Assembly (NCBI GenBank): GCA_900319405.1 | Contig: ONOH01000002.1 | Span: forward strand, 51,883-115,882 | DNA from: an uncultured Bacteroidales bacterium | GTDB taxonomy: Bacteria; Bacteroidota; Bacteroidia; Bacteroidales; UBA932 | Direction of reading: 5' to 3' | Length of the DNA: 64,000 bases | Shown here: piece after piece, positions 14,078-37,092 of the stretch | Layout: each line of letters opens with the position of its first letter | How positions within the stretch are numbered: position 1 is the stretch's first letter | Program-made: the position numbers and the translations under genes | The notes under the pieces: generated by a model | Databases searched by the model: none | The model's input: only the letters and a program-made list of their open reading frames with translations | What the model was told of the DNA's origin: nothing

Positions 14078-15385
14078 TTAATGCGCAGGATATTTGCGGA
14101 TGACGTCATCCAGGTGCTTGAAGCGCTTGGCCAGCCAGGTCTTAAGCTTGTCGAACTCTTTCTTGTGCTTGTAATTCCTGATGCCCCAGAGGTCCATATC
14201 CCTCTGGGCTTCCTCGCCGATGATCTCCTCCACCTGATCCAGATAATCCAGCAGGCCGACCAGCAAATCGCTGTGGGTTTCTTCCCAGCGGGCCTGCAGC
14301 TGCCTGACGAACTCGGGAATGCCGAACAGGCGGCAGAAAAAGGGCGAGGCGGAGGTGCCGTATGCACCGATGTGGTAATAAGGGTTCGAGCCAAAGACCA
14401 GGTAACTGTAATCTCCGAAGAACGTATGTCCCCAACCGCGGGAGTCAAACATATCTCCCCAATTGTAGGAAAAACCTCCGTCACAGTCCCAGACCGGACC
14501 CATCACCCACTTGGAGTCATCGTCATAACGATGGATAAAGCCGCTGCGCATACTGGGATAGTTATCCATTTCCACATTGCCGATGATTTCCTGGACAAGG
14601 ATATAGTTAATCATCGATTCTACGTCCAGAAGTTCCTGGATGGCATCCCAGTCTTCGTCCTCAATGGCTTTTTCCAGCTGCGCGAATTCTGCCTTCACCT
14701 GTTTGGAGATGGCCCTGGTGGCATCTTCGGGATATTTTACGGCGCAGGCCATCCCGAACACCTCACTCCAGAAATTGTCAGTGGCACGAGGCATATCTCC
14801 GGGACCGTCGTTGATATCCAGCGCCAGCAGTATTCCCTCCTTCCCATCCAGTTTTACGCGGTTTCCGCCTTCCTCCACCTGCTCGGTAAGGGCATACAGT
14901 CCCATATCCTTTCCGTTCAGGACAAGGGTCACATAACGGATGTGGTTGGTATGGGGCAGACCCAGCTCCCGTGCCAGGTAGAAACCGGCGGCATTCATCA
15001 TATGCGTGACATCCCTGTAATCGGCCAGGAGCACCCAGTCCCGGTTCTTCGGAAGGCCCAGCATAATGGACGCTGCATCCAGCTTGATCCGGTACGGCTT
15101 TTTGGGATACCAGTCCCAGGTGGAGTTGCCCCGGCCGCGAATCTGGGCCGGAACGTCTTTCACGATGGCGCTGTCAAACACCCAGTCTACGGTAAGCGTA
15201 CAGCGGCGGTAATCGGCAGGGTCCTTGCTGTCCACGGCTGCGCCGTTTTCCGTGTTCACAATCAGCTTGGCGATGGGGGACAGCTCGGGAATATTCTCCT
15301 CCGGTATTTCGGGGATGACCTCCCGCCTGCAACCGGCCAGCGCCAGCGCAAGGAGCAAAACCCATCCCGATTTTTTCAGATACAT
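14078..15385 (-). CDS. CotH-family kinase-like lipoprotein
   Basis: The 435-residue protein has a lipoprotein signal ending LAGC and a CotH domain. The diagnostic stretch RGRGNSTWDWYPKKPYRIKL is followed by LLADYRDVTHMMN, the LYALTEQVEEGGNRVKLDG segment and the DCDGGFSYNWGD metal-binding-like motif. CotH proteins are atypical protein kinases first studied in spore coats; in Bacteroidota they are common in polysaccharide loci with no settled role. It lies 3 bp after GH51 and 21 bp before GH27, so it belongs to the operon. The target is unknown. Confidence 0.87.
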   Translation of the reverse strand: MYLKKSGWVLLLALALAGCRREVIPEIPEENIPELSPIAKLIVNTENGAAVDSKDPADYRRCTLTVDWVFDSAIVKDVPAQIRGRGNSTWDWYPKKPYRIKLDAASIMLGLPKNRDWVLLADYRDVTHMMNAAGFYLARELGLPHTNHIRYVTLVLNGKDMGLYALTEQVEEGGNRVKLDGKEGILLALDINDGPGDMPRATDNFWSEVFGMACAVKYPEDATRAISKQVKAEFAQLEKAIEDEDWDAIQELLDVESMINYILVQEIIGNVEMDNYPSMRSGFIHRYDDDSKWVMGPVWDCDGGFSYNWGDMFDSRGWGHTFFGDYSYLVFGSNPYYHIGAYGTSASPFFCRLFGIPEFVRQLQARWEETHSDLLVGLLDYLDQVEEIIGEEAQRDMDLWGIRNYKHKKEFDKLKTWLAKRFKHLDDVIRKYPAH

Positions 15386-15388
15386 GGC

Positions 15389-17422
15389 CTAATTCCTATG
15401 AAATCTGTAAACGACGAAAGTCCTTCCGCCCAGTCTTTCACTGTATTCCACGCTTCCGTCCGGCTGCCGGCGTACGCCCAGAAGCCAGGCGTTGTCCGGA
15501 TCTGCCACAGGGGTGAAATCCAGTGTCCGGCTCACCGGAACAATGGTTTCCGGCGCATCCAGGCTGTTCTCGGCCACAGGATTGTCGCTATGCAGGGTAA
15601 TCCTTTCTCCGGACTTCACTTCTGCGGGCAGTGCAAAATACAGCGTCTGGGAATAAGGACTCAGGTTGGCCACCTTGACGATGATGTCTCCGGTGGCCTC
15701 GTCAATGGCCGCGCTTGCATTGAGGCCGTCGGCGTTAACAACCGGCTTGCCGTCCACGGTAATGGGGATGGCTCGGTCTCCTTTGTTGGCAGCGTACAAC
15801 TGCTGGACATAGTAGCTGCAGGTTTTCATCACACGGAGGTTGTCGAACCAGATGAGGTCCGGCCGCCACTGCCAGCCCTCCACGTGGGCGAAGGTAGGCG
15901 CATAACTGGACATCACCACAACGTCTGCGTTGCGCTCCAGACCGGTCATGAACGAGGCTTCCAGGAGGGCGGCGTTGAAATGGTTGAACTTCTTGCCGTC
16001 GGAGCCGTGGCAGGCATACTCTCCGGCAAACACCTTGGGACCGGTGCGGGGATAGGAATCGTAGCGGCCAGCGTTCTTCTCGTAAAAGCCCTCCCAGCTG
16101 TAATAATGCTCGTCCACCAGGTCCACGTCCAGGCGGCGCATCTCCTTCCAAAGGTCATCGAACCATTCCCCGCCCAGATAGGGACCCGAGGTGCCGATAA
16201 TCTTGATTTCCGGATACCTGGCCCGAACGGCTTCCATAAAGGGAATAAAACGCTCTATGAATTCTGCGCCCCACTGCTCGTTGCCGATTCCCAGGTACTT
16301 GAGATTGAACGGTTCCGGATGTCCCATCTGGGCGCGCACCTTCCCCCACTTGCTCTTGGGCGATCCATTGGCAAATTCAATGAGGTCCAGGGCATCCTGG
16401 ATGTAGGTCCGGAGGTCATCCATGGAACAGTTGGGATGCCAGTCCGGATCGTTCTGGAACTGGCAGGCCATACCGCAGCTCACAATAGGGACGGGCTCTG
16501 CACCGATCTCCTCCGCCAGGCGGAAATACTCATAGAAACCAAGTCCGCCACTCTGGTAATAGTCCGGGAACATACGCTCGAAGGTGCCGTAGTTCCAGCG
16601 GTTGATGTTGATGGGTCTGTTCTCCACCGGTCCCACCGTATTTTTCCACTGATAGCGGTTCTCCAGCGTCGTGCCTTCCACGATGCAGCCGCCGGGGAAA
16701 CGGAGAATGCCGGGGTGAAGATCGGCCAGCGCCTGGGCCAGGTCTTTCCGGAGGCCGTTCCCGTCCCCGTTGAAAGTCTCCGCAGGGAACAGGGAAATGT
16801 GCTCCACATCCACTGCTGCCTGGGGATCTTCATCCCAGAGAAGCAGGCGGAAGGCGCCTTTCTCCAAAGTTATGGGAGAAGTAAGGGTCGCCTCATATCT
16901 GGCCCACTTGCTGCCTTTGACGGTGATCTCTGCCAGTGCCAGGTTCTGGTTCTCCCCTTCCCCCTGCGGCTTCACCAGAATGGCAGCCAGGCCCACCTCC
17001 TTGGGTTTTCCGGCCGTACGGGCCCAGAACGTCAGCTTGTAATCGGCCCCTTTTTCATAGCCGATTCCGAACCAGCCGTCGTTCTGCAGGCCACTCTGGC
17101 GGGCAGGGTGCCCCTGATAGCCGAAACGGACATAGTGCGGGTTGCGCTCAAAGGGAGCTTCATCCGTGCGCACTTCCACCTTGCCGAAGCTTTTCCAGCC
17201 CTGCAGCGGGTTTTCGTATTCGAACGATCGGTTGCAGATTTTCTCGGCGTACAGGCCGCCGTCTGCTGCAAAGTTGATGTCTTCCAGAAAAATGCCGTAC
17301 ATCGTGGGCTGGATGGGAATGCCGGGGGCATCCACCGCCAGTTCCAGCACATTCTTCCGGGCCTGGGCAGCGGCCGTCACACAAAGGGCGGCCAGCGCGG
17401 CGCTTAACAATAGCTTTTTCAT
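15389..17422 (-). CDS. GH51 alpha-L-arabinofuranosidase
   Basis: The start at 17422 overlaps the GH127 stop as ATGA; an ATG 12 bp upstream would add MGGK and is less likely. A signal peptide (VTAAAQ) is followed by a carbohydrate-binding-like beta domain. The GH51 barrel has the acid/base Glu382 in GIGNEQWG and the likely nucleophile Glu468 in VFAGEYA, then the C-terminal alpha-L-AF_C sandwich. The architecture matches the plant/Bacteroidota type of secreted GH51. It removes terminal alpha-L-arabinofuranose from arabinan, arabinoxylan or extensin-type arabinosides. It is the second gene of the operon. Confidence 0.95.
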   Translation of the reverse strand: MKKLLLSAALAALCVTAAAQARKNVLELAVDAPGIPIQPTMYGIFLEDINFAADGGLYAEKICNRSFEYENPLQGWKSFGKVEVRTDEAPFERNPHYVRFGYQGHPARQSGLQNDGWFGIGYEKGADYKLTFWARTAGKPKEVGLAAILVKPQGEGENQNLALAEITVKGSKWARYEATLTSPITLEKGAFRLLLWDEDPQAAVDVEHISLFPAETFNGDGNGLRKDLAQALADLHPGILRFPGGCIVEGTTLENRYQWKNTVGPVENRPININRWNYGTFERMFPDYYQSGGLGFYEYFRLAEEIGAEPVPIVSCGMACQFQNDPDWHPNCSMDDLRTYIQDALDLIEFANGSPKSKWGKVRAQMGHPEPFNLKYLGIGNEQWGAEFIERFIPFMEAVRARYPEIKIIGTSGPYLGGEWFDDLWKEMRRLDVDLVDEHYYSWEGFYEKNAGRYDSYPRTGPKVFAGEYACHGSDGKKFNHFNAALLEASFMTGLERNADVVVMSSYAPTFAHVEGWQWRPDLIWFDNLRVMKTCSYYVQQLYAANKGDRAIPITVDGKPVVNADGLNASAAIDEATGDIIVKVANLSPYSQTLYFALPAEVKSGERITLHSDNPVAENSLDAPETIVPVSRTLDFTPVADPDNAWLLGVRRQPDGSVEYSERLGGRTFVVYRFHRN

Positions 17423-19836
17423 TTTACCTCCCATTCATACAGGCCGGCCGAAAGCTCTTCCGGCAAATCGACTTCCAGTTTTACGGCAGTGGTGGTCACC
17501 GGGGTGAAGTGAACCTCACAAGCGGCGCCCTTTACCGTAGGATAAGCATCGGCTCCCTGTACAGGGACCCACTCCCCTGCCTCGTTCCTGTAGAGAATGC
17601 GCCAGGCTTTGGGCACGGAGCAGCCGCCCCAGGGCTGGTCGTCAAACCAGTAGATGGTGCAGGAAGATACCGTTGCCGGGGCTTTGAAGCTGTAGGAGAC
17701 CCATTCGGTGCCGCCGTTTTTGGGCCACCAGTGATAGTACGGCGACGATTCGTCACCGGGAATGAGCTGGTCATTGACAGCGCCGATGGAACGGACCATG
17801 TGGGAAGCGTCAATCACGCTCTCGGAGGCCAGGGTAGCCGGTTTGGAAGGCTTGGTGGCCCGCAGGGCCTGGGGAAGCCAGACGGCCATTTCTCCGCTGC
17901 CGCGGTGACACCAGGCATAATAAGGGATGAGGATGAGTTCCACATCACGGGTGGAAAGGCGTCCGTCTTCTCCGAAAGAGAGTGTCTGGGCACAGCTGGC
18001 AATCTTCTCTATGCCAAAGAGTTCATCGGCGTGCTTAACAATAAACTTGGGCTCCTGGTTCATCAGGATGCTGCGTACGGAGAAGCCGGGGTTGTCCGGC
18101 CATTCGGCGCAATAGACCACGGGGCCGCGTTCAATGGAAATGCGTCCCTTGTCCGCCTCTACGGCCTGGTGGGCTTTCACCACACGCGGTTCCATATCAA
18201 AGTGAACGCTCACCTTGTCTCCCTTTTTCCACTTGCGGGAAATCACAAAATAGCCGTCCACCAGCCCAGCTTCCACTTTTTCTCCGTTCAGGCTCACCGA
18301 GTAGCCCAGTTGTTTGCCATCGGCATATTTATAAAGGTCCGAGGGGACCACCTGGCCCCTTACCCAGCCGGGAATGCGGATTTTGAGGGCCATCTCTTTC
18401 CGGAGCTCCGTCTTGTCAATGGTAATGTCGATGTCTCCGTTCCAGGGATAGGACGTCTTCTGCGAGAGGGTCACTTCCCTTCCCTGCACCTTCTGCTTCA
18501 TCGTGTTGGGCATAAAGAGGTTCACATACAGGGCATTGTCCTTCACGGCATAGACGTAACCGGGCACGGAAGGAATGAAGCGGCAGATATTGGACGGACA
18601 GCAGGCGCAGCCGAACCAGGCCTGGCGCTGATGCTGGCCGATGCTTTCCAGCGGATTGGGATAGAAGAAGCCATTGCCCTCCAGCGAAACGCCGCTGATG
18701 AGACCGTTGTACAGGGTGCGCTCCAGCACATCGTAGTACTTGGACTCTCCGTGCAGCAGGAACATACGGTAGTTCACATACACATTGCCGATGGCAGCGC
18801 AAGTCTCGCAGTAGGCGCTCATATTGGGAAGCTGGTAGTTCTCACCGAAAGCCTCTCCCGCATTGGTGGCACCGATACCACCTGTGATATAGAGTTTTTT
18901 GGAAACGATATTGTCCCAGATCCGGTCGATGGCGTCAATGTAGCCCCGGTCTCCTGTAAGGGCGGCGACATCAGCCATACCGGCATACATATACGCGGCA
19001 CGGACGGCGTGCCCGACGGCCTCATCCTGGTCCAGGACGGGCAGATGGGTCTGGTTGTATCCGTCCCGGTAGTCGGTCTTTCCCCGCTCGTCCAGGAAAA
19101 ATTTAGCCTCTTCCAGGTATTTCTTTTCTCCTGTGGCCAGATACAGTTTCGCCAGGGCCATTTCAGCGATCTGGTGTCCCGGGACCACACGGGCCTGTCC
19201 GGAACCGGAGCCCACTTCCCTGACCACGCAGTCCGCGAACTTAATGGCGATGTCCAGGAAATTGCGCTTGCCGGTGGCCTGATAATGGGCGATGGCGCCC
19301 TCCACCATATGGCCCAGGTTGTACAGCTCGTGGCTCAGCTCCTCATCCTTTACCCAGCGACGGTCTCCGGCCCACTCGTGGGGGTGTTCCGGGTTCATCG
19401 TACGGGAGGTGTAAAGGTAGCCGTCCGGCTCCTGGGCGGCAGCCACGATGGCCAGCACGCTGTCGATATAGCTCTCCAGTTTTTTATCCGGATAGGTTTG
19501 CAGCACATAGGAGGCACCTTCGATGGTTTTGTACACATCGGTGTCGTCAAAGGAATATCCTTTCACCTCATAACCCAGGTTCACCGGGGAGTGCATCTGC
19601 TTTTCCGCCTTGACAAAATTTTCGTAGCGGCCCTCGCTCTCGCATTTGGAAAAAGCCAGCGGAATGGTCACTTCCCGGGATGCCTTGAGACGCTGCCCCC
19701 AGAAGGAGTTCTGCTCGATTTTCACGCTGGTGAAGGGGACCGGATTAATAGGATAACCCGCCTGGGATGCGGGCTGTGCCTGGAGGGAGATGACGGCTGC
19801 CAGGCCAGCCAAAACGGCGATAAACTGCTTGGTCAT
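17419..19836 (-). CDS. GH127 beta-L-arabinofuranosidase (DUF1680)
   Basis: The start at MTKQFIAV is chosen because it opens a signal peptide. The DUF1680 (alpha/alpha)6 barrel carries the zinc-thiolate site of the HypBA1 type: Glu344 and Cys346 in YCETCAAIG, and Cys412-Cys413 in FGCACCPSNIC, one of which would be the nucleophile. Characterised GH127 enzymes release beta-L-arabinofuranose, classically from hydroxyproline-linked beta-1,2-arabino-oligosaccharides of extensin. It is the first gene of the nine-gene operon, and its promoter carries the shared direct-repeat operator. Confidence 0.93.
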   Translation of the reverse strand: MTKQFIAVLAGLAAVISLQAQPASQAGYPINPVPFTSVKIEQNSFWGQRLKASREVTIPLAFSKCESEGRYENFVKAEKQMHSPVNLGYEVKGYSFDDTDVYKTIEGASYVLQTYPDKKLESYIDSVLAIVAAAQEPDGYLYTSRTMNPEHPHEWAGDRRWVKDEELSHELYNLGHMVEGAIAHYQATGKRNFLDIAIKFADCVVREVGSGSGQARVVPGHQIAEMALAKLYLATGEKKYLEEAKFFLDERGKTDYRDGYNQTHLPVLDQDEAVGHAVRAAYMYAGMADVAALTGDRGYIDAIDRIWDNIVSKKLYITGGIGATNAGEAFGENYQLPNMSAYCETCAAIGNVYVNYRMFLLHGESKYYDVLERTLYNGLISGVSLEGNGFFYPNPLESIGQHQRQAWFGCACCPSNICRFIPSVPGYVYAVKDNALYVNLFMPNTMKQKVQGREVTLSQKTSYPWNGDIDITIDKTELRKEMALKIRIPGWVRGQVVPSDLYKYADGKQLGYSVSLNGEKVEAGLVDGYFVISRKWKKGDKVSVHFDMEPRVVKAHQAVEADKGRISIERGPVVYCAEWPDNPGFSVRSILMNQEPKFIVKHADELFGIEKIASCAQTLSFGEDGRLSTRDVELILIPYYAWCHRGSGEMAVWLPQALRATKPSKPATLASESVIDASHMVRSIGAVNDQLIPGDESSPYYHWWPKNGGTEWVSYSFKAPATVSSCTIYWFDDQPWGGCSVPKAWRILYRNEAGEWVPVQGADAYPTVKGAACEVHFTPVTTTAVKLEVDLPEELSAGLYEWEVK

Positions 19837-19859: not shown

Positions 19860-19867
19860 CAAATGTA
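19860..19867 (-). promoter_or_regulatory. -7 box of the GH127 operon promoter (TACATTTG)
   Basis: It matches TAnnTTTG on the minus strand, 23 bp upstream of the GH127 ATG. There is no TTTG at the -33 position, as expected for an activator-dependent promoter. The operator lies 28 bp upstream. Confidence 0.65.
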
Positions 19868-19895: not shown

Positions 19896-19925
19896 GAAAT
19901 CCAATTGTTTTGTAAAATCGTCCAA
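19896..19925 (-). promoter_or_regulatory. Direct-repeat operator upstream of the GH127 operon
   Basis: Read on the minus strand, TTGGACGAT (19925-19917) is followed 21 bp later by TTGGATTTC (19904-19896). The downstream half-site ends exactly 28 bp before the -7 box. The same half-site and geometry occur upstream of susC at 22851 and the GH146-like gene at 37092. Two-turn tandem half-sites are typical of AraC-family binding, and the candidate protein is the regulator encoded at 19972. Confidence 0.65.
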
Positions 19926-19957
19926 AGAAGCCCTTGTATGAAATAAAAAAATAACAC

Positions 19958-19965
19958 TATCTTTG
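19958..19965 (+). promoter_or_regulatory. -7 box of the regulator gene (TATCTTTG)
   Basis: It matches TAnnTTTG exactly and lies only 6 bp upstream of the ATG at 19972, so the transcript would have almost no leader. The shared operator lies about 32 bp upstream, so autoregulation is possible. Confidence 0.55.
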
Positions 19966-19971
19966 TTACCT

Positions 19972-22845
19972 ATGAAAAAGATACTGACCGCACTGATTCT
20001 GATACTGTTCTCCCTGCAATGCCCGGCCGCGGGGCCCGAATACAGTTTCCGGCACCTAACCTCCGGGGATGGACTATCCTCCAATACCGTGCGCGCCCTC
20101 CTGCAGGACCACCGGAACATCATCTGGATAGGAACCTCCGAGGGACTGGACAGTTTTGACGGACGGGAGGTAATCCACCACGAGCTTTCGGAAAATGGCC
20201 CCAACTACGTGAACTGTTTGCTGGAAGACTCTTCCCACGTGCTGTGGGCAGGCACCGACGATGCCCTGTACCGATATGTAAACGGCGGTATGGAGCAGGT
20301 ACAGGACGCTCCCAAGGCAGCCTACTCCTGCATGGCGGAAGACAGCGACGGTGCTCTTTGGCTGGGTACGATAGACAATGGCCTCTACCGTTACCACAAC
20401 GGGGTATTCACGGCCTTTCTTCCGGGACAGATTATTGAAGCCCTCCGTTTTACGGAACAAGGCCGCCTGTGGGTGGCTTCCCTGTCGGCCCCGGACGGAC
20501 TGTTTCTTTTCAATGACGCACTGGAACAATTCACCGACCCTTCCTTTTCCTACTACGATTGCACGCCCGCACGCGTGTGCGCAATGGAGGAAGACGGAGC
20601 CGGCAACCTCTGGCTGGGGACTTGGGACAAAGGCATTTATCGAATGGACCCTACCACCCGGAGCGTGCGCTGTGTAGTCCCTGCCCAGACCGGGCTAACC
20701 CGCATTCATTCCCTGCTGCAGGAATCCTCCCGGAACCTTTTGGCCGGTTCCGACGAGGGTTTGTTTCAGGTAGACCCCTACACCGGAGAACACACCCTTT
20801 ACACGAATGATCGCAATGCCCTTCGCTCGTTGTCCAATAAATTTGTCTATCCCCTCCTGAAAGACCACGAGAACGGGTTGTGGATAGGGACATTTTACGG
20901 CGGTGTCAACTATGTATCTCCCGGCAACGGACAGTTTCTGTCCCTCTCCCTGTCAGACCTTACCGGCGCGGAAGAAGACTTCGCCGTGAGCAGCTTCTGC
21001 GAAGATCCGGACGGGAGCATCTGGATGGGATCGGACAACGGCGGCCTGTTCCGTTATTATCCTGAGAGCGGGAAAGCCGAGCAATGGGCCCCTTCGGCCG
21101 CCTGGGCATCGCGCTTTGCCTCGCTCAACATCCACGCACTGTACCGCCAGGGAGACTGGCTCTGGATTGGCAACTACCCCTCACGCTCCCTCCGGGTGAA
21201 CCTGAAAACCAAGGCCGTTCAGGAGTATGCTCCCCTGAGTGTCTATGCTTTCTATCTTGCGGAGGATGGCAGACTCTGGGCAGGAAACACATCCGGCATC
21301 TGGCGGTACAACCCCTCGGAAGACCTTTTTATTCAGGAAAAAACGGTCAGCGAAGTGGTCTGGACCATTGCGGGCGCCCCCGACGGGACCCTGTGGTTCG
21401 GCACCAGCGGCAAAGGCATTTTCGTGCGAAAGCCGGCAGGAGACTGGGAAGAGCTCAACAGCCAGAACTCCATCCTCCCCAACGACTATGTGAATCACCT
21501 GCTGTTCTCTCACGAAACGCTTGTGGCCAGCACCCGACGGGGCATTGCCGTCTTTGCAAAAGACAATCCTCACGTTTTGCTGCCCAAAACCGACGTTCGC
21601 TTTTTATCCTACAATTCCTCCCATCTTTGGATGTCTTCCACCAAGGCGCTGATGCGACTCGGCCCCCAGGAGGCCCCTGTATTGGAACGGTTCCAGAAGT
21701 ACGACGGCGTGTTCACGGAGCAATATATGCCCGGAGCCGGCCTCATTTCCAGGGATGGACATATTTACCTGGGGGCCGCCAACGGTTTCCTGTCCTTTTT
21801 TCCGGGCGCCGTCTATTCCGCTCCTCCGCTGCCCAAGGTGCTTTTCACCCGCTTTTATGCATCGGGGCACGGAAAGCTTCTCAATGTTTTTGCCTCTCAC
21901 GGTGACGAGCCTTTCCACCTCCCCTTCCGTATGCGGAACCTCACCATCGGCTTCGCCGCCCCCAGCTTCAGCGTTCCGGAAAAGGTTCAATATGCCTACC
22001 GGCTGGAAGGCGGCGACAACGAATGGACCGAACTGGGTAACCAAAACTGGGTGAACCTGAACCTGCTTCCGCCGCGCAGTTACCGCCTGCACGTAAAAGC
22101 CCGCAACAATAATGGAGAGTGGAATGAAGGTACCGTCCTGGAATTCGACATCAAAGCCCACCCCCTGCTCTCCAAAACGGCCATCGTAATCTATTTCATC
22201 CTGGGTGCCCTGCTGGTCTGGCTGGCCCTCCGCGCGCTCACCAGGCGCGTGGAGCGCAAAACCAAAATCCAGATCGAGGGCGAGGAAAGGGACGACCGCA
22301 TCCAGATGCTCAATACCCTGGCAGACCAGCTGGAGGCCCCTATTACGGGAATCGGCCTGCAGGTAAAAAAGCTGAAGGGAAGCGCATCCTCGGCGGAGCT
22401 TACCATCATTGACAAAAACCAGCGGATGCTCCGCGGTATCGTGGGGAATCTGCGGATGATGAAACAAACCACCTCGGAAGATCCTTCCAGGGCGGCCGAG
22501 CCAGAGGGACCGGAGGCCTTTATGGCCCGTTTGGACCATCTTATCACGGACAATCTGGCCAATCCGGACCTTTCCGTAAGCTTCCTGGCCCAGGAGATGG
22601 CCATCTCCCGCTCCGGCCTTTTCGCCAAAGTGAAAGAGTACACGGGAGAAACACCCAACAATCTGATTTCGCAGGCACGTCTGAACACGGCGGCCAACCA
22701 CCTGTCCCGCGGAAAATATTCCGTTGGAGAGATCTGCTATATGACCGGATTCTCCTCTCCCAGTTATTTCTCCAAAGTCTTTGCCGCCCAATTTGGTCTG
22801 CCTCCGCTCGAATGGGCAAAGAAACACGCCCATTTTATGGATTAA
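19972..22845 (+). CDS. Propeller/Y_Y_Y sensor-AraC regulator lacking kinase and receiver domains
   Basis: The protein has 957 residues from the ATG that opens a signal peptide. The layout is a periplasmic two-component-regulator propeller (repeated GLWIGT, SIWMGSDNGG, LWLGTIDNGL motifs, ~25-650), a Y_Y_Y domain (~660-725), a membrane helix (~735-757), a DHp-like two-helix segment, then an AraC HTH (~865-957). In the DHp segment the usual SHEFRTPLTLI is replaced by ADQLEAPITGI, so the phospho-accepting histidine position is Asp785. No N, G1, F or G2 boxes and no receiver domain exist between it and the HTH; full-length hybrid systems are about 1300-1400 residues. It probably senses a locus oligosaccharide and acts without phosphotransfer. 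Confidence 0.9.
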   Translation: MKKILTALILILFSLQCPAAGPEYSFRHLTSGDGLSSNTVRALLQDHRNIIWIGTSEGLDSFDGREVIHHELSENGPNYVNCLLEDSSHVLWAGTDDALYRYVNGGMEQVQDAPKAAYSCMAEDSDGALWLGTIDNGLYRYHNGVFTAFLPGQIIEALRFTEQGRLWVASLSAPDGLFLFNDALEQFTDPSFSYYDCTPARVCAMEEDGAGNLWLGTWDKGIYRMDPTTRSVRCVVPAQTGLTRIHSLLQESSRNLLAGSDEGLFQVDPYTGEHTLYTNDRNALRSLSNKFVYPLLKDHENGLWIGTFYGGVNYVSPGNGQFLSLSLSDLTGAEEDFAVSSFCEDPDGSIWMGSDNGGLFRYYPESGKAEQWAPSAAWASRFASLNIHALYRQGDWLWIGNYPSRSLRVNLKTKAVQEYAPLSVYAFYLAEDGRLWAGNTSGIWRYNPSEDLFIQEKTVSEVVWTIAGAPDGTLWFGTSGKGIFVRKPAGDWEELNSQNSILPNDYVNHLLFSHETLVASTRRGIAVFAKDNPHVLLPKTDVRFLSYNSSHLWMSSTKALMRLGPQEAPVLERFQKYDGVFTEQYMPGAGLISRDGHIYLGAANGFLSFFPGAVYSAPPLPKVLFTRFYASGHGKLLNVFASHGDEPFHLPFRMRNLTIGFAAPSFSVPEKVQYAYRLEGGDNEWTELGNQNWVNLNLLPPRSYRLHVKARNNNGEWNEGTVLEFDIKAHPLLSKTAIVIYFILGALLVWLALRALTRRVERKTKIQIEGEERDDRIQMLNTLADQLEAPITGIGLQVKKLKGSASSAELTIIDKNQRMLRGIVGNLRMMKQTTSEDPSRAAEPEGPEAFMARLDHLITDNLANPDLSVSFLAQEMAISRSGLFAKVKEYTGETPNNLISQARLNTAANHLSRGKYSVGEICYMTGFSSPSYFSKVFAAQFGLPPLEWAKKHAHFMD

Positions 22846-22850
22846 CAGGT

Positions 22851-22880
22851 TTGGACGATAGTTGAAAAACCTTGGACAAT
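22851..22880 (+). promoter_or_regulatory. Direct-repeat operator upstream of the second susC
   Basis: TTGGACGAT (22851-22859) and TTGGACAAT (22872-22880) start 21 bp apart, and the second ends 28 bp before the -7 box, the same geometry as upstream of GH127. The second half-site is also one arm of an inverted repeat, CCTTGGACAAT/ATTGCCCAAGG (22870-22897), overlapping the -33 position. Confidence 0.65.
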
Positions 22881-22908
22881 TTTTTTATTGCCCAAGGCGC
22901 ACGTCGTT

Positions 22909-22916
22909 TATATTTG
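22909..22916 (+). promoter_or_regulatory. -7 box of the second susCD operon (TATATTTG)
   Basis: It is an exact TAnnTTTG match, 43 bp upstream of the susC ATG. Only a weak -33 (ATTG at 22887-22890) is present, consistent with activation from the adjacent operator. Confidence 0.65.
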
Positions 22917-22959: not shown

Positions 22960-25900
22960 ATGCATTTCAAAACTATCTGTTCAGTTCTGGCCACCGGTCT
23001 TATGCTCCTCGTGGGCATTCAGGCCAATGCCCAGCGAACCATCGAAATTACCGGTACCGTCACCGATGCCAAGGGTGAACCCGTCATTGGCGCAGGTGTC
23101 CTTGTTTCCGGTACCCGAATCGGTGACATTACCAACGAACACGGTCAGTATCGTCTTACCGGCGTCAGTTCCAATGCCACCCTTACCTTCTCCGCCATCG
23201 GCTATCTTCAGGCCGATGAGCCCGTTCAGGGCCGCAGCGTCATCAATCAGACGCTCCAGGAGGACTTCCTGTCCCTGGAGGATGCCGTGGTCATCGGATA
23301 CGGCACCCAGAAAAAGGGCGACATCACTTCGGCTGTGGCCAATGTCAAGAACGAAGACTTCCTGAAAGGTAATATCGGAGACGCAGCCCAGCTGGTAAAA
23401 GGCAAGGTGGCCGGTCTGAATGTTACCAAAGGCAACGGTGACCCCAACTCCACCTCCACCATCATGCTCCGCGGTGTCAATTCCCTGATGGGCGGCTACA
23501 CCCCGCTGGTGCTGGTGGACGGCATTGAAGGCTCCCTGGCCACCGTGGCACCGGAAGCCATCGAGGAAATCACTGTTCTGAAGGACGCCTCCGCGGCTGC
23601 CATTTACGGAACCCGCGGTGCCGCCGGTGTCATCCTCATCACCACCAAGGCCGGCAAAGTCGGAGAACGTTTCAACATTTCCTACAACGGTTACGCTTCC
23701 CTGTCCCAGTTCTCCAAACGGGTGGACTTCATGGATGCCGAGTTTATGCATATGCTGGAATCTCTGGGGACCAACAGCAAGGGGCAGACCTACCTGTCCA
23801 TCTACTCCCCGTTCCCCAACCTGGGTTATACGACCGACTGGTTGGGAGAGGTTAGCCAGAACGGCTTCGCTCACAACCATAATATTTCCCTGGAAGGCGG
23901 TGCCAAACATATGGCCTATTCCGCCAACCTCACCTACCGCGACAACCAGGGTGTAATTAAGGGCTCCTACGGAAAAGACCTCCGCGCACAGGTGGACCTC
24001 ACCCAGTACCTGTTTGACGACATCCTGAGACTGAACGTCAACATCCTGAAGACCCTCTCCCAGAACGACAACCAGGACAGCTGGACCATATACCACCAGG
24101 CGGTCATCCGCAACCCCACGGCTCCCATCTACGTAAACGGAGACCCCAAGGAAGATTACTACGAGCAAACCGCCCCGCTGTATTATTACAACCCTATTCC
24201 TTATAACAAGGAGCACGTCGGTGACTATCGCATCGAAACCACCCGTCTGACCGGGAACATTACGCTGGAACCCATTCCCGGCTGGAAAACCAACCTGCAG
24301 CTGGGTACCCGCCGCAACAATTCCGTGAACGAGTACTACAACACCGCCAAATACCAGGGCAACCGCTGGGGCGGCATCAACGGCAGCGCCGGCAAGAGCC
24401 AGGGAGACTTCACCCAGAACCTCCTGGAGATAACCAGCCAGTATGACCGCCAGCTGAGCAGGCATCATATCAGCGGCATGGTCGGCTACAGCTGGATGCA
24501 AAGCATCAGCAGCGGTTTTGGCGCATCCAACTCCGAATTCCCCACGGATGCCTACCTGTACAACAAACTGCAAGCGGGCCGCTTCGCGGAACTCATCGAG
24601 CCGGACACCGCGGATCCCGCCACCCTGCGCACCTACGCGGGCGTTTCCTCCTACAAGAACGAATCCCGCCTCATCGCTTTCTTCGGCCGGGCCACCTACA
24701 ACTTTGACAACCGTTTCAACATCCTGGCCACCCTGCGTTACGAAGGCAGCACCAAGTTCGCCACCAACAACAAATGGGGCCTGTTCCCGGCCGTCTCCGT
24801 GGGTTGGACCCTCTCCAACGAAGACTGGCTCAAGAATGTGCGGTGGCTGGACAACCTGAAACTCCGTGCCGGCTACGGTAAGACGGGCGTTATCCCGGGA
24901 TCCTCCTATATGTCCCTGCTGCTGTACGACTATGACACTTCCTACGGCAACTACATCACCCCGGACGGCAAGTGGAGACCTTCCATCACCCCCATTCAGA
25001 ACCCGAATGACAACCTCAAGTGGGAAACCTCCCAGGAATTCAATATCGGTGCCGACTTCGGCTTCTTCAACGGTCGCCTGTACGGCTCCCTGGATGTGTA
25101 TTCCAAGGTGACCACCGACCTCCTGTGGGATTACACCGTACCCGTTCCCCCGAACCTGCACAACGTCACCACCGCCAACGTAGGCTCCATGTCCAACCGC
25201 GGCGTGGAACTGATGCTGGGCGGTGTCCCCGTGCGCACGCACAATTTTGAATGGAACACCACCTTCACCGTCTCCCACAACAAGAACCGCCTGGAGTCCC
25301 TCTCCAACGATCTGTATGAAACGGAAGACTACCTGGACGGTGCCTGGACCGAGGAGCCCACTTCCATGGTCCTGCAGCGTACCTACATCGGCGGCGCCCT
25401 GGGAGACTTCTATATGCTCAAGTCCACCGGACTCAGCACCGCCCGTTCCACGGCCGGCCAGTGGATGATCGAAGACCCCGAAACCGGAGAATCCACCCCG
25501 TTCATGGACGGCATGCGCAGCTATGACTCCCGCTACCGCCAGTACCTGGGCTCCGGCGTTCCCGCTGTCAACCTGGCCTGGAGCAACACCTTCCGCTACC
25601 GCGGTTTCGACCTTTCCCTGGCCTTCTCCTCCGCCCTGGGCTTCAAGATTTTCAACTGCCAGCGCATGTTCTACGAAAACCTGAACATCGGCCTCAACCG
25701 TTACAAGAGCGCCGTCCTGCCGGTATATGGCGGAGTTCTGTCCGCTTCCCAGCAGCCTGTGGCCGTGAGCTACTATCTTGAGAACGGTGACTACCTGAAG
25801 CTGGACAACCTGAACTTCGGTTACAGCTTCAAGACCGACAATTGCAAGTACCTGGAGCGCGCCCGCGTATTCTTCTCCGGCGAAAACCTGTTCACCCTCA

Positions 25901-26031
25901 CCGGCTACCAGGGCATCGATCCGGAAATGTCCACCGGAGACCGCTTCGGATTCGGCGTGGACTACCGCAACAAGTATCCCACAATCCGCACCTTCACCCT
26001 GGGCGTGAACGTCACTTTCGGCAACAAGTAA
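22960..26031 (+). CDS. SusC/RagA-family TonB-linked outer-membrane transporter (second pair)
   Basis: The 1023-residue protein has a signal peptide ending NAQ, a carboxypeptidase-regulatory-like domain (GTVTDAKGEPVIGAGV), the motif VVIGYGTQKKGDITSAV, a plug with LVLVDGIEG and YGTRGAAGVILITT, and a barrel ending FTLGVNVTFGNK. It is clearly paralogous to the SusC at 7720 but divergent in the loops, so a related but different ligand (for example another chain length) is likely. It is the first gene of the plus-strand operon and carries the shared operator. Confidence 0.95.
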   Translation: MHFKTICSVLATGLMLLVGIQANAQRTIEITGTVTDAKGEPVIGAGVLVSGTRIGDITNEHGQYRLTGVSSNATLTFSAIGYLQADEPVQGRSVINQTLQEDFLSLEDAVVIGYGTQKKGDITSAVANVKNEDFLKGNIGDAAQLVKGKVAGLNVTKGNGDPNSTSTIMLRGVNSLMGGYTPLVLVDGIEGSLATVAPEAIEEITVLKDASAAAIYGTRGAAGVILITTKAGKVGERFNISYNGYASLSQFSKRVDFMDAEFMHMLESLGTNSKGQTYLSIYSPFPNLGYTTDWLGEVSQNGFAHNHNISLEGGAKHMAYSANLTYRDNQGVIKGSYGKDLRAQVDLTQYLFDDILRLNVNILKTLSQNDNQDSWTIYHQAVIRNPTAPIYVNGDPKEDYYEQTAPLYYYNPIPYNKEHVGDYRIETTRLTGNITLEPIPGWKTNLQLGTRRNNSVNEYYNTAKYQGNRWGGINGSAGKSQGDFTQNLLEITSQYDRQLSRHHISGMVGYSWMQSISSGFGASNSEFPTDAYLYNKLQAGRFAELIEPDTADPATLRTYAGVSSYKNESRLIAFFGRATYNFDNRFNILATLRYEGSTKFATNNKWGLFPAVSVGWTLSNEDWLKNVRWLDNLKLRAGYGKTGVIPGSSYMSLLLYDYDTSYGNYITPDGKWRPSITPIQNPNDNLKWETSQEFNIGADFGFFNGRLYGSLDVYSKVTTDLLWDYTVPVPPNLHNVTTANVGSMSNRGVELMLGGVPVRTHNFEWNTTFTVSHNKNRLESLSNDLYETEDYLDGAWTEEPTSMVLQRTYIGGALGDFYMLKSTGLSTARSTAGQWMIEDPETGESTPFMDGMRSYDSRYRQYLGSGVPAVNLAWSNTFRYRGFDLSLAFSSALGFKIFNCQRMFYENLNIGLNRYKSAVLPVYGGVLSASQQPVAVSYYLENGDYLKLDNLNFGYSFKTDNCKYLERARVFFSGENLFTLTGYQGIDPEMSTGDRFGFGVDYRNKYPTIRTFTLGVNVTFGNK

Positions 26032-34121: not shown

Positions 34122-37004
34122 CTACAGGGCTTTCAAGGCATCCTCCAGGCGACGATAGGCAATGTCGATGAAGTCCTTGGTTCCGGAGCCGTCGTTCACG
34201 TAGCCGATAACCATATCGGCAAAGTCGATGGCCTCGCGAAGCGGGGTATTCTTGTCCCGGATCTCCTTGGCCTGAACGGTGAGTTTGAGGAGGGCATCCA
34301 GGTCCTCCGGCTCGGCCAGGTTGCCGGGCCGCATGGAGTTGATGGCCGCATTCAGGGACGACGTAGCACGGGTAACGGCTTCCTGCACGGAAGACTCATC
34401 GGCCAGTACGGTCTCCGCGGCCTGCAGCTGCTCCTGCATACGGGCATAAGCGTTGGGGGCCCAGGGGGCGAACGGCGGAACCTTCTCTTCCAGGGCATTC
34501 CAGGCATTCTGGGCCTGCACACGCGAGCGGGCAATCTTGACGGCCTGCTCCAGATAGGTCTTGTCCACAGTACCGGGCCTGGCCGTTTCCTTGTTTCCGG
34601 TAAGTACATTCAAGCGCAGGTAGTGCGTGCTGTGTCCGGTCAGGTAATAGTCCGGATAGAAGGTCTTGTCTCCCAGGGTAAGGCTATAGACATTGCCGTC
34701 TGTTCCTTCACCGCCGGAGGTTCCTTTGAGCACAATGTCCTTGAGGTCTGCATCCAGGGTGAATTCCGCCTGCTCCCAGACCGTGATGTCCGGGGTGGCC
34801 ATCACCAGCGGACCATACATGATGGCTCCTTCCCACATAGGCTCGAACGGAGTACGGACCTCATTGACGCCCGTCGCGGCCAGATCCATCTTGTCCGGTC
34901 CAAAGTGGATGTGGGCGCCGAAGGGCATTTTCACCTCCACCTTGTCTCCGGCCTTCCAGTCACGCTCCGGAATTTCCACATAAGAGCAGGACTTGTAAGT
35001 CTTGGCAACGGACTTGCCGTTCAGCTTTATGCTGAAGCCCTTGGTGGCCCAGTAAGGCACGCGCAGTTTCATCGCAAAGCAACCGCCCTTTTCGATGCGG
35101 ATAACCGACGCTTCCGCCGGCCAGCTGCATTCCTGGACAAACTCCACATCCTTTGCAGCCCAGCGGACCTGCGTGGGCAGGTACAAAGCTACCCACAAAG
35201 TATTCTCGTTGGTAAAAAAAGCCGCCTCCTGGTATTTCACGTGGTTCTCGGATCCGGTACCGCCGCAGCAGGTGCTTTGGGGCGTTTCGCTGCCAAAAGG
35301 CTTGCTGGCATTCATTCCAACGGCGTACTGGTAACAAACCCCGTATTCTTCCGGATGCACGGAACCCACCAGCTGGTTGTAAAGCACACGCTCATAGTAA
35401 TCCATGTAACGGGCGTCGTCTGGACGGAAGGCATTGAGATCCTTGGTGAGCTTGGCCAGGTTGTAGGCACAGCAGGTTTCGTTGATATCCGGGTTGGGGA
35501 AAAGGTTTCCGCTGCGGTCGCTCATCACGCTGGTGTTCATGCTCATCATCTGGGAATAAGGCTGGCGGAACATCTCCCCGTTGCCCACGCCGCCCATGGC
35601 ATAGGCATAGCGTCCCTGAATCATCTCCCAGAAGTTGGAGGCAATGTTGTAGTAACGCGGGTCTCCGGCCACTTCGTACGATTTCAGGGCCCCTACAATC
35701 ATAGGGATGTGCTGATTGGCGTGACGGGTGCGGATATCATCGATATTGCGGGAAAGCGGCTCATAAAAAGCCGGGGAGTCAAAATAGGTGGCAGCTTCGG
35801 CCAGGCGCTCTTTCTCCAGGGTGTCCGACACCATATCGCTAAGGCGGGAGAGAGATTCCTGCATGCCTCCCACTTCTCCGGCGATGTACATATTCCACAT
35901 CTCGTAACGGTTGCCGGGACGTGCCTGACGCTCGGCCTTGGTGCCCCCGGCATTCACATAAGTGCGATAATGAAGGCGGTTCCACACCCACAGTCCCATA
36001 TCCTTGGCGATAAGGAGAGCCTTGGAAGCGATCTGCTCGTCGTCAATCTGGAGGGCAATGTCGATAAGGCCGGCCAATTGCTTGTGGATGGAATAATACG
36101 GGGCCCACACGCCACTGAAGTTGTTGTACGCTGTGTATTTTTCAATCAGGACCGGATGCTGGGCGGGGATGGCATTGATGTAGCCGTAGCCATAGCGGGT
36201 GCAGTCTTTCTTGTATTCCTTGAAGGCATCCCATGTGCCTTTCATCTTCACCAGCTCAGCCTCCGGGGCCAGATCCCTTGCCTCGCGGTAGCGGCCCAGT
36301 TTCTTGTCAAACACGAAGGTGAGCTCCTGGCAGGCGCGGAGTTCGTCCACCATACGGGAGATATTGGCCTTGAGAGCCTCCTTGTGCCCGGGGTCGTCGG
36401 TGCTGGCATAAGCGAAGGCCAGGGCGCTCATATAATGGCCGCTGCCGTGGCCCTTGAGCTTGGTTTCCGGGGAATCCCAGCCGTCGCTCTCCGTATAACC
36501 CTCCGTGGAAAGACCATAGGTATCCCGGTAGTTGTACAGCTGCTGGGTGATATCCAGGGACAGCAGATTACGGATATCCAGATCACGGTTTCCGGTGAGA
36601 CGGTTGTTGCCAATAAGCTTCACATCCCCCAGAGGTAGGGGCTGCGCCACCAGCGAGGGCGTTTCCCAGGCTCCCTCCACCACCTCCACGGCCGCCTCCA
36701 GCGGATAACCGTTCTCGGTGGTGTTGTCTCCTATGATATAGCCTTTCACCACATACGTGCTGCCCGCTGGAAGGGCGGCTTCCTCCTCCTCGGTTTCACG
36801 AAGGGAGTTTGTCCATTTAACCTGGCGCCATTCCCGGGTTCCGTCAGCATAAGTGACCTGGATTTGCCAGGGCAGGCGCGGCACCGTGCCCTGCGGTGTC
36901 CGGACCGAAATATCGGGCACTTCCTGGATGATTCTGGCTGTTTTGGAGGAGGTGCAGGCTGCTGTCAAAGCGGCAAGAAGTACAAGTTTGGCTATGAGTT
37001 TCAT
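34122..37004 (-). CDS. DUF1680-family beta-L-arabinofuranosidase lipoprotein (GH127/GH146-like)
   Basis: The start is set at MKLIAKLVLL, which opens a lipoprotein signal (TAAC); the frame extends upstream but that part overlaps the promoter. The protein has 960 residues: an N-terminal Ig-like domain (RLPWQIQVTYADGTREWRQV), then a DUF1680 (alpha/alpha)6 barrel with INETCCAYNLAKL and STCCGGTGSENH, which supply the Glu/Cys zinc site of this clan. A beta domain and a helical C-terminal repeat region follow. It is only distantly related to the GH127 at 17419, so a different beta-L-arabinofuranoside linkage is likely. Its promoter carries the shared operator. Confidence 0.85.
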   Translation of the reverse strand: MKLIAKLVLLAALTAACTSSKTARIIQEVPDISVRTPQGTVPRLPWQIQVTYADGTREWRQVKWTNSLRETEEEEAALPAGSTYVVKGYIIGDNTTENGYPLEAAVEVVEGAWETPSLVAQPLPLGDVKLIGNNRLTGNRDLDIRNLLSLDITQQLYNYRDTYGLSTEGYTESDGWDSPETKLKGHGSGHYMSALAFAYASTDDPGHKEALKANISRMVDELRACQELTFVFDKKLGRYREARDLAPEAELVKMKGTWDAFKEYKKDCTRYGYGYINAIPAQHPVLIEKYTAYNNFSGVWAPYYSIHKQLAGLIDIALQIDDEQIASKALLIAKDMGLWVWNRLHYRTYVNAGGTKAERQARPGNRYEMWNMYIAGEVGGMQESLSRLSDMVSDTLEKERLAEAATYFDSPAFYEPLSRNIDDIRTRHANQHIPMIVGALKSYEVAGDPRYYNIASNFWEMIQGRYAYAMGGVGNGEMFRQPYSQMMSMNTSVMSDRSGNLFPNPDINETCCAYNLAKLTKDLNAFRPDDARYMDYYERVLYNQLVGSVHPEEYGVCYQYAVGMNASKPFGSETPQSTCCGGTGSENHVKYQEAAFFTNENTLWVALYLPTQVRWAAKDVEFVQECSWPAEASVIRIEKGGCFAMKLRVPYWATKGFSIKLNGKSVAKTYKSCSYVEIPERDWKAGDKVEVKMPFGAHIHFGPDKMDLAATGVNEVRTPFEPMWEGAIMYGPLVMATPDITVWEQAEFTLDADLKDIVLKGTSGGEGTDGNVYSLTLGDKTFYPDYYLTGHSTHYLRLNVLTGNKETARPGTVDKTYLEQAVKIARSRVQAQNAWNALEEKVPPFAPWAPNAYARMQEQLQAAETVLADESSVQEAVTRATSSLNAAINSMRPGNLAEPEDLDALLKLTVQAKEIRDKNTPLREAIDFADMVIGYVNDGSGTKDFIDIAYRRLEDALKAL

Positions 37005-37026: not shown

Positions 37027-37034
37027 CAAAAATA
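37027..37034 (-). promoter_or_regulatory. -7 box of the GH146-like gene (TATTTTTG)
   Basis: It is an exact TAnnTTTG match on the minus strand, 22 bp upstream of the ATG at 37004, with no -33 TTTG. Confidence 0.65.
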
Positions 37035-37062: not shown

Positions 37063-37092
37063 TTTGTCCCGAATTCTGGTAAAATCCTCCAA
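37063..37092 (-). promoter_or_regulatory. Direct-repeat operator upstream of the GH146-like gene
   Basis: On the minus strand, TTGGAGGAT (37092-37084) is followed 21 bp later by CGGGACAAA (37071-37063), which ends 28 bp before the -7 box. The first half and its flank, TTGGA(G/C)GATTTTAC, match the GH127 operator closely; the second half is weaker. Confidence 0.55.

What the first reader, a model, noticed from the sequence alone, without database searches (positions are those of the whole stretch)
19896..22916. Shared direct-repeat operator with identical geometry at two divergent promoters flanking the regulator gene
Seen directly: TTGGACGAT-N12-TTGGATTTC upstream of GH127 (minus) and TTGGACGAT-N12-TTGGACAAT upstream of the second susC (plus). 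In both, half-sites start 21 bp apart and the downstream half-site ends exactly 28 bp before a TAnnTTTG box that lacks a good -33 element. A 9-bp exact match plus identical spacing at both ends of the regulator gene is unlikely by chance. AraC-family activators bind such two-turn repeats. Inference: the regulator at 19972 activates both operons from this site and may autoregulate, since the first operator also lies upstream of its own promoter.
Basis: partly seen in the sequence, partly recalled or inferred. Interest (0 to 1): 0.8.

Follow-up and report, generated by a model that had tools for sequence, protein, structure and literature searches.

The report
Sugar-gene switch that lost its kinase
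Two copies of a paired DNA signal flank a bacterium's sugar-sensing gene and are probably read by its product to switch on plant-sugar digestion genes; the sensor belongs to a well-known phosphate-relay class but has lost the relay parts while keeping the DNA signal.

Summary
TTGGACGAT-N12-TTGGA occurs at 19900-19925(-) and 22851-22876(+); the relaxed pattern occurs nowhere else in the 2.13-Mb genome. In relatives the site keeps its sequence and its 58-bp distance to a TAnnTTTG box while flanking DNA diverges. It travels with the regulator: 16 of 400 genomes of the genus had the pattern; 13 of these have the orthologous regulator beside it, one a shortened version, two look like chance. A third, weaker site (37063-37092, -) precedes a second GH127-type gene. 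A 21-bp direct repeat is the published operator form of hybrid two-component systems (HTCS; PMC3878776), so the operator is ordinary. The regulator is not: in 12 of 12 complete orthologs HATPase and receiver are missing, and a histidine-less DHp-like hairpin joins membrane helix to AraC domain. Its nearest complete HTCS relative stands beside a GH127-family gene with a weaker site of the same kind at 58 bp. Best reading: a phosphorylation-free, membrane-anchored activator derived from an HTCS. Autoregulation is open. Binding was not tested.

The parts
19896..19925 (-). Operator 1: TTGGACGAT-N12-TTGGATTTC upstream of GH127
   Evidence: first half-site invariant, second 93% identical in 11 non-redundant genomes
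19860..19867 (-). TACATTTG box, 58 bp from the first operator base
17419..19836 (-). GH127 gene, first gene of the minus-strand run
   Evidence: Pfam PF07944
19958..19965 (+). Regulator's own TATCTTTG box, 6 nt before its ATG
19972..22845 (+). Regulator, 957 aa: Reg_prop propeller + Y_Y_Y + transmembrane helix + DHp-like hairpin + AraC; no HATPase_c, no Response_reg
22162..22242 (+). Predicted transmembrane helix (about residues 731-757)
   Evidence: hydropathy; part of one long helix in the model
22255..22497 (+). DHp-like hairpin without the phospho-acceptor His (residues 762-842)
   Evidence: hhalign probability 95.1, E 3.1e-8; HisKA match in 2 of 12 orthologs
22585..22821 (+). AraC-type DNA-binding domain (HTH_18, residues 872-950)
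22851..22880 (+). Operator 2: TTGGACGAT-N12-TTGGACAAT upstream of the second susC
22909..22916 (+). TATATTTG box, 58 bp from the first operator base
22960..26031 (+). susC2 (TonB-dependent receptor), first gene of the plus-strand run
37063..37092 (-). Operator 3 (weaker): TTGGAGGAT-N12-CGGGACAAA
   Evidence: matching site at the orthologous gene in G038
37027..37034 (-). TATTTTTG box, 58 bp from the first base of operator 3
34122..37004 (-). Second GH127-type gene (960 aa; Big_4, GH127 catalytic and middle domains)

Best explanation
The sites are operators of the regulator encoded between them. The regulator is a membrane-anchored descendant of hybrid two-component systems that has lost the kinase catalytic domain, the receiver and the phospho-acceptor histidine. 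Most likely mechanism: a periplasmic glycan fragment binds the propeller; the change passes through the membrane helix into a dimeric DHp-derived hairpin; this places two AraC domains on the 21-bp direct repeat (two turns, same DNA face). From there they help RNA polymerase at a TAnnTTTG promoter that has no good -33 element, with no phosphate transfer. Targets are the GH127 operon, the susC2 operon and, with a weaker site, the second GH127-type gene. Shown by sequence: site, spacing, conservation, co-occurrence, domain loss, kinship with complete HTCSs. Inferred: DNA binding, activation, dimer, ligand, direction of signalling.
For: Uniqueness in the genome and shuffles. In 400 genomes of the genus 16 have the pattern (up to 1 mismatch) and 0 the backwards pattern. 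Of these 16, 13 have the orthologous regulator starting 25-48 bp away (G359's is cut by a contig end), and G096 has a 286-aa membrane-helix + AraC protein beside it. Among the 101 genomes searched with the regulator, 5 of 5 with the ortholog have the site and 1 of 96 others (G096) does. The 58-bp spacing to TAnnTTTG holds in 12 of 13 GH-side promoters and in the 6 downstream sites that exist. Flank identity is 36% and 41%, half-sites 100% and 93% (11 genomes). The operator stays when the neighbour changes: GH27 instead of GH127 in G003, G394 and G359. HATPase_c and Response_reg match 0 of 12 orthologs but match the complete relatives L010 and L012. DHp kinship. Sister to the complete HTCS of G088 with SH-aLRT 99 and 100. 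That HTCS has a site of score 14.7 at 58 bp before a GH127-family gene; 0 such sites in 2.46 Mb of other loci, both strands counted.
Against: No binding or expression data. Of 12 orthologs whose downstream side was read, 6 have no complete second site, and 2 of the 6 that have one are weak (11 of 15 letters); in G389 a susC2 relative follows with only the first half-site left. In G336 the GH-side box at 58 is TAATTTTA, with TAATTTTG at 66. Operator 3 is 1 mismatch off a loose pattern whose backwards control also gives 17 hits against 57 at up to 2 mismatches. For 289 of the 400 genomes the regulator was not searched, so co-occurrence is shown only where both searches were made, and the genomes are related. 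The hairpin part of the model has low confidence (pLDDT 50-65), and HisKA passes E 0.01 in only 2 of 12 orthologs. The G088 site is much weaker (14.7 against 26-45 for family sites) and the AraC end of its regulator is cut by a contig end.
Confidence: 0.78

Rival explanations
1. The regulator reads these operators but is still switched by phosphorylation, through a separate kinase or receiver protein that docks on the DHp-like hairpin.
For: The hairpin is kept, with several invariant positions in 12 orthologs.
Against: The acceptor histidine is absent in the 12 aligned linkers; there is no receiver in the 12 proteins, and none among the PUL genes scanned. The rest of the genome was not searched for orphan kinases or receivers.
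Confidence: 0.1
2. The operator belongs to another regulator, and its place beside this gene is inherited gene order.
For: Orthologous loci share ancestry, so co-occurrence is not independent.
Against: The site survives changes of neighbour gene, was found in only 1 of 96 genomes without the ortholog, and has the published HTCS form. In that one (G096) a short protein whose AraC domain is 53% identical sits beside it.
Confidence: 0.07
3. The protein binds as a repressor and the ligand releases it.
For: AraC-type proteins can repress (recalled).
Against: The site lies upstream of the promoter, ending 28 bp before the box, at promoters that mostly lack a -33 element, as expected for activation.
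Confidence: 0.05

Closest known systems
Bacteroides hybrid two-component systems (HTCS), e.g. BT4663 and BT4124
   Same: Propeller sensor with Y_Y_Y, C-terminal AraC domain, susC/susD neighbours, and an operator of two direct repeats about 21 bp apart (PMC3878776: passages, section 8 read)
   Different: No HATPase_c, no receiver, no phospho-acceptor histidine; 957 aa, against about 1250-1450 for most complete HTCSs
SusR-type regulators
   Same: Bind sugar in the periplasm and activate sus operons (PMC3878776 passages); membrane-anchored without phosphorelay (recalled)
   Different: Predicted SusR motifs have tandem sites 67 or 77 bp apart and a DNA-binding domain unlike other known ones; here AraC and 21 bp
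ToxR/CadC-type transmembrane one-component activators
   Same: Periplasmic sensor, one membrane helix, cytoplasmic DNA-binding domain, no phosphorelay (recalled)
   Different: Their DNA-binding domain is a winged helix (recalled); no common origin is claimed

Membership tests
Hybrid two-component system (HTCS) | Propeller sensor with Y_Y_Y | tested here: met
   12 of 12 orthologs
Hybrid two-component system (HTCS) | C-terminal AraC domain | tested here: met
   12 of 12 orthologs
Hybrid two-component system (HTCS) | Histidine kinase with phospho-acceptor His and HATPase_c | tested here: not met
   HATPase_c in 0 of 12; acceptor His absent in 12 of 12 aligned linkers
Hybrid two-component system (HTCS) | Receiver domain | tested here: not met
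   Response_reg in 0 of 12
Hybrid two-component system (HTCS) | Descent from HTCS | tested here: met
   one clade (100) joined to the complete HTCS of G088 (99, 100; quick trees, LG+G4, midpoint root, long branches flagged elsewhere); DHp kinship
HTCS operator | Direct repeat about 21 bp apart | tested here: met
   published form in PMC3878776
HTCS operator | Same 58-bp spacing at promoters of other HTCSs in the genus (my own question, not part of the published definition) | tested here: inconclusive
   23 of 40 susC upstream regions had a usable box: lag 21, offset 59 tops the map, but partner-shuffled controls reach the observed 3.43 (mean 2.91, max 3.64)
One-component transmembrane activator | Signal transfer without phosphorylation | not testable with these tools
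   only the loss of the relay domains was shown

The most novel reading that the evidence does not exclude
HTCSs can drop kinase and receiver and keep working as phosphorylation-free transmembrane activators on the same operator and target. In this genus it seems to have happened several times: with regulators labelled by the distance from Y_Y_Y to AraC, the quick tree needs 8 changes, at least 5 forced by well-supported branches; without L206, which keeps an H-box, 7 and 6. In G096 the periplasmic sensor is gone too. This family and its kinase-bearing sister in G088 would be a natural experiment on what the phosphorelay is for.
Probability: 0.6. Interest if true: 0.68.

Novelty: new variant of a known kind. 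Interest (0 to 1): 0.57.

Why it matters
HTCSs are a major class of polysaccharide-use regulators in gut Bacteroides, and phosphotransfer is taken as their working principle. In complete ones tested (BT4124, BT4663) the receiver holds the DNA-binding domain back (PMC11253607, passages). A conserved family without receiver or kinase, on an operator that keeps the HTCS form and a fixed promoter distance, suggests that sensor-driven dimer geometry alone may be enough. It also gives a compact, testable regulon for enzymes acting on beta-L-arabinofuranosides.

Tried and rejected
Tried without result: the same geometry at HTCS promoters in other families of the order (40 loci). No lag-21 peak near 58 appeared in 93 intergenic boxes; of 17 susC upstream regions most had no TAnnTTTG within 300 bp, so this is a poor test. 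The genus test (23 of 40 susC regions; earlier 55 boxes in 45 loci, top at lag 21 offset 61) is suggestive only: shuffled partners reach the value and several promoters are related. The next complete HTCSs (G007, G024) show no PWM site; in G024 one exact TTGGACGAT lies 59 bp before a box at the second GH127-type gene, without a second half-site. Model and fold search support only the AraC domain.

Set aside: one search used a mis-spaced pattern (0 of 300, own genome included) and is ignored; one search was out of frame, redone; one search mixed two kinds of site and is replaced; the pattern hits in G225 and G177 were taken as chance, as the printed sequence shows no TAnnTTTG at 58 bp and no ortholog is beside them. 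G394 and G359 were dropped as near copies of G003. In some searches reading frames under 850 or over 1600 aa were left out. The 82 frames include one identical pair and one contained in another. Paper searches aimed at kinase-less HTCSs listed no title or abstract start that describes one; of the listed papers I read only passages of PMC10766802, and the library lacks most subscription papers.

Full report
1. The window has TTGGACGAT-N12-TTGGATTTC on the minus strand (19896-19925) and TTGGACGAT-N12-TTGGACAAT on the plus strand (22851-22880). In both, the half-sites start 21 bp apart and a TAnnTTTG box begins 58 bp after the first base. The relaxed pattern TTGGANNATN12TTGGA hits only these two places in the genome (2.13 Mb, 59 contigs, 89% complete), with no hit for the pattern read backwards. 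In 20,000 dinucleotide shuffles of the two intergenic regions, 8 shared any lag-21 5-mer repeat and none reached the observed 9 of 9.

2. What lies around. Pfam finds GH127, an arabinofuranosidase (ASD1 domain, GH51-type), CotH, a GH27-type Melibiase_2, an S9 peptidase, SusC and SusD in tight order on the minus strand from 19836 down, then a gene with a DUF4859 match below its cut-off and a DUF6055 gene. On the plus strand after operator 2 come SusC, SusD, a DUF4859 gene and two DUF6055 genes. On the minus strand at 34122-37004 there is a second GH127-type gene. The two named relatives found are an uncultured Bacteroidia MAG and a Bacteroidales MAG.

3. The site in relatives. The pattern TTGGACGATNNTNNAAAANNNNTGGA with up to one mismatch was found in 16 of 400 genomes of the genus, the backwards pattern in 0 of 400. 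Five of the 16 were known from the 101-genome regulator search to have the ortholog; the other 11 were then searched. In all, 13 of 16 have the orthologous regulator beside the site (G000, G003, G005, G038, G069, G148, G217, G295, G336, G359, G366, G389, G394), its start codon 25-48 bp from the operator. G096 has the site beside a 286-aa protein with a membrane helix, a linker and an AraC domain but no propeller; there the site is also 58 bp from a box, before GH97 and GH127 genes. G225 and G177 look like chance. Among the 101 genomes, 5 of 5 with the ortholog have the site and 1 of 96 others does (Fisher 7.6e-8; the genomes are related, so the number is only a guide). In 289 of the 400 genomes the regulator was not searched.

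4. Fixed geometry. The GH-side distance from operator to box is 58 bp in 12 of 13; G336 has TAATTTTA at 58 and TAATTTTG at 66. On the downstream side 12 orthologs could be read: 6 have a site, all with a box at 58 (G000, G005 and G038 complete, G366 14 of 15 letters, G069 and G148 11 of 15), and 6 have none complete (G003, G217, G295, G336, G389, G394). In 11 non-redundant genomes the 45 bp before the operator are 36% identical, the first half-site 100%, the middle 88%, the second half-site 93%, the 31 bp to the box 41%, and the box 82%, aligned without gaps. On the regulator's side the distance to its own box is 31-34 bp in 12 and 10 bp in G148. So the operator is set for the target promoters; a role at the regulator's own promoter is open.

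5. More targets. A pattern with the 58-bp spacing, up to two mismatches, gave 57 hits in 14 genomes against 17 for the backwards control (my sums of the table). Among hits with at most one mismatch, the second GH127-type gene or its relative follows in G000, G038, G069, G148, G217, G295, G336 and G389, and a lipoprotein-like gene of about 520 aa in G069, G148 and G336; of the latter only the G069 one was scanned, with a weak DUF6055 match. Whether the other genomes have these genes was not checked throughout.

6. The regulator. The 12 complete orthologs all match Reg_prop, Y_Y_Y, HTH_18 and HTH_AraC; none matches HATPase_c or Response_reg; 2 match HisKA weakly. The complete relatives L010 and L012 match HisKA, HATPase_c and Response_reg. 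Profile comparison of the linker with the DHp region of 12 complete HTCSs gives probability 95.1 and E 3.1e-8; 20 column shuffles reach at most 1.3, the reversed profile 0.2; the HEIRTP-type box is replaced by QLEAP-like letters with no histidine at the acceptor place. The AlphaFold2 model (mean pLDDT 74.8) shows one helix through the membrane into a hairpin, then the AraC domain; the hairpin has low confidence. Its best PDB matches are AraC-type proteins.

7. Origin. Among 82 sensor-plus-AraC reading frames in the genus loci in hand (a set chosen by likeness to this protein, so biased; one identical pair), 70 have 339-477 residues between Y_Y_Y and the AraC domain and 12 fewer than 330; 11 of these 12 have no H-box, L206 has one. 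Pfam confirmed the missing domains in four of the 12 (L018, L023, L073, L211). In a quick tree of 89 rows the family is one clade (100) joined to the complete HTCS of G088 (99), then to those of G007 and G024 (95); without L206 the first two are 100 and 100, and the third is not listed as well supported. The short state needs 8 changes with at least 5 forced, or 7 and 6 without L206; both runs flag long branches. The G088 HTCS stands divergent from a GH127-family gene, with a site of PWM score 14.7 exactly 58 bp before TATCTTTG; no so good site at that distance occurs in 80 other loci (2.46 Mb counting both strands). So the operator and target probably predate the loss of the kinase, though this rests on one weak site, and the AraC end of the G088 protein is cut by its contig end.

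8. What is known. PMC3878776 (section 8 read) predicts for 16 of 36 B. thetaiotaomicron HTCSs direct repeats with a mean of 21 bp between tandem sites, read as a dimer on one DNA face. The operator is therefore of a known kind. The same paper says all HTCSs it identified have kinase and receiver (passage). PMC11253607 (passages) reports that the receiver inhibits the DNA-binding domain in HTCSs; here there is none. Six paper searches listed nothing that announces a kinase-less HTCS, in a library that lacks most subscription papers.

9. Substrate, inference only. GH127 of Bifidobacterium longum belongs to a system for arabino-oligosaccharides of hydroxyproline-rich glycoproteins such as extensin (PMC7263609, passages). 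Two GH127-type genes, an alpha-L-arabinofuranosidase, a GH27-type alpha-galactosidase candidate, an S9 peptidase of DPP IV type and three DUF6055 lipoprotein-like genes with HExxH would fit glycoproteins of that kind; extensin also has Ser-linked alpha-galactose (recalled).

10. Verdict. A real, conserved operator of known HTCS form, read most likely by a regulator that has lost the HTCS phosphorelay. Ordinary as an operator; unusual as a regulator.

Noticed in passing
30056-31891 (+), 31891-34056 (+), 2170-4215 (-): Three DUF6055 lipoprotein-like genes carry an HExxH motif and one a weak Peptidase_MA_2 match: perhaps secreted metallopeptidases, fitting a plant-glycoprotein rather than a plain polysaccharide substrate.
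   Followed up: partly
19958-19974 and 12 ortholog loci: The regulator's ATG lies only 3-7 nt after its TAnnTTTG box in 13 of 13 genomes, which suggests a leaderless or nearly leaderless mRNA.
   Followed up: partly
L094:4254-5114 (-), genome G096: A 286-aa protein of membrane helix, linker and AraC domain stands in for the regulator beside the same operator: the sensor is absent as well as the kinase.
   Followed up: partly
G000:C22 about 19-20 kb (L101): The only other Reg_prop protein that one search found in this genome also runs from a membrane helix to an AraC-type end without room for a kinase (translation, cut at the locus end). No complete Reg_prop HTCS showed up in this 89%-complete genome.
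   Followed up: no
L192:4605-13532 (-), genome G069: A single open frame of 2976 aa holds an HTCS and about 1600 further residues: a fusion or an assembly effect.
   Followed up: no
14078-15385 (-): A CotH kinase-like gene sits in the GH127 operon and has relatives in the same place in several genomes; its role in sugar use is unclear.
   Followed up: no
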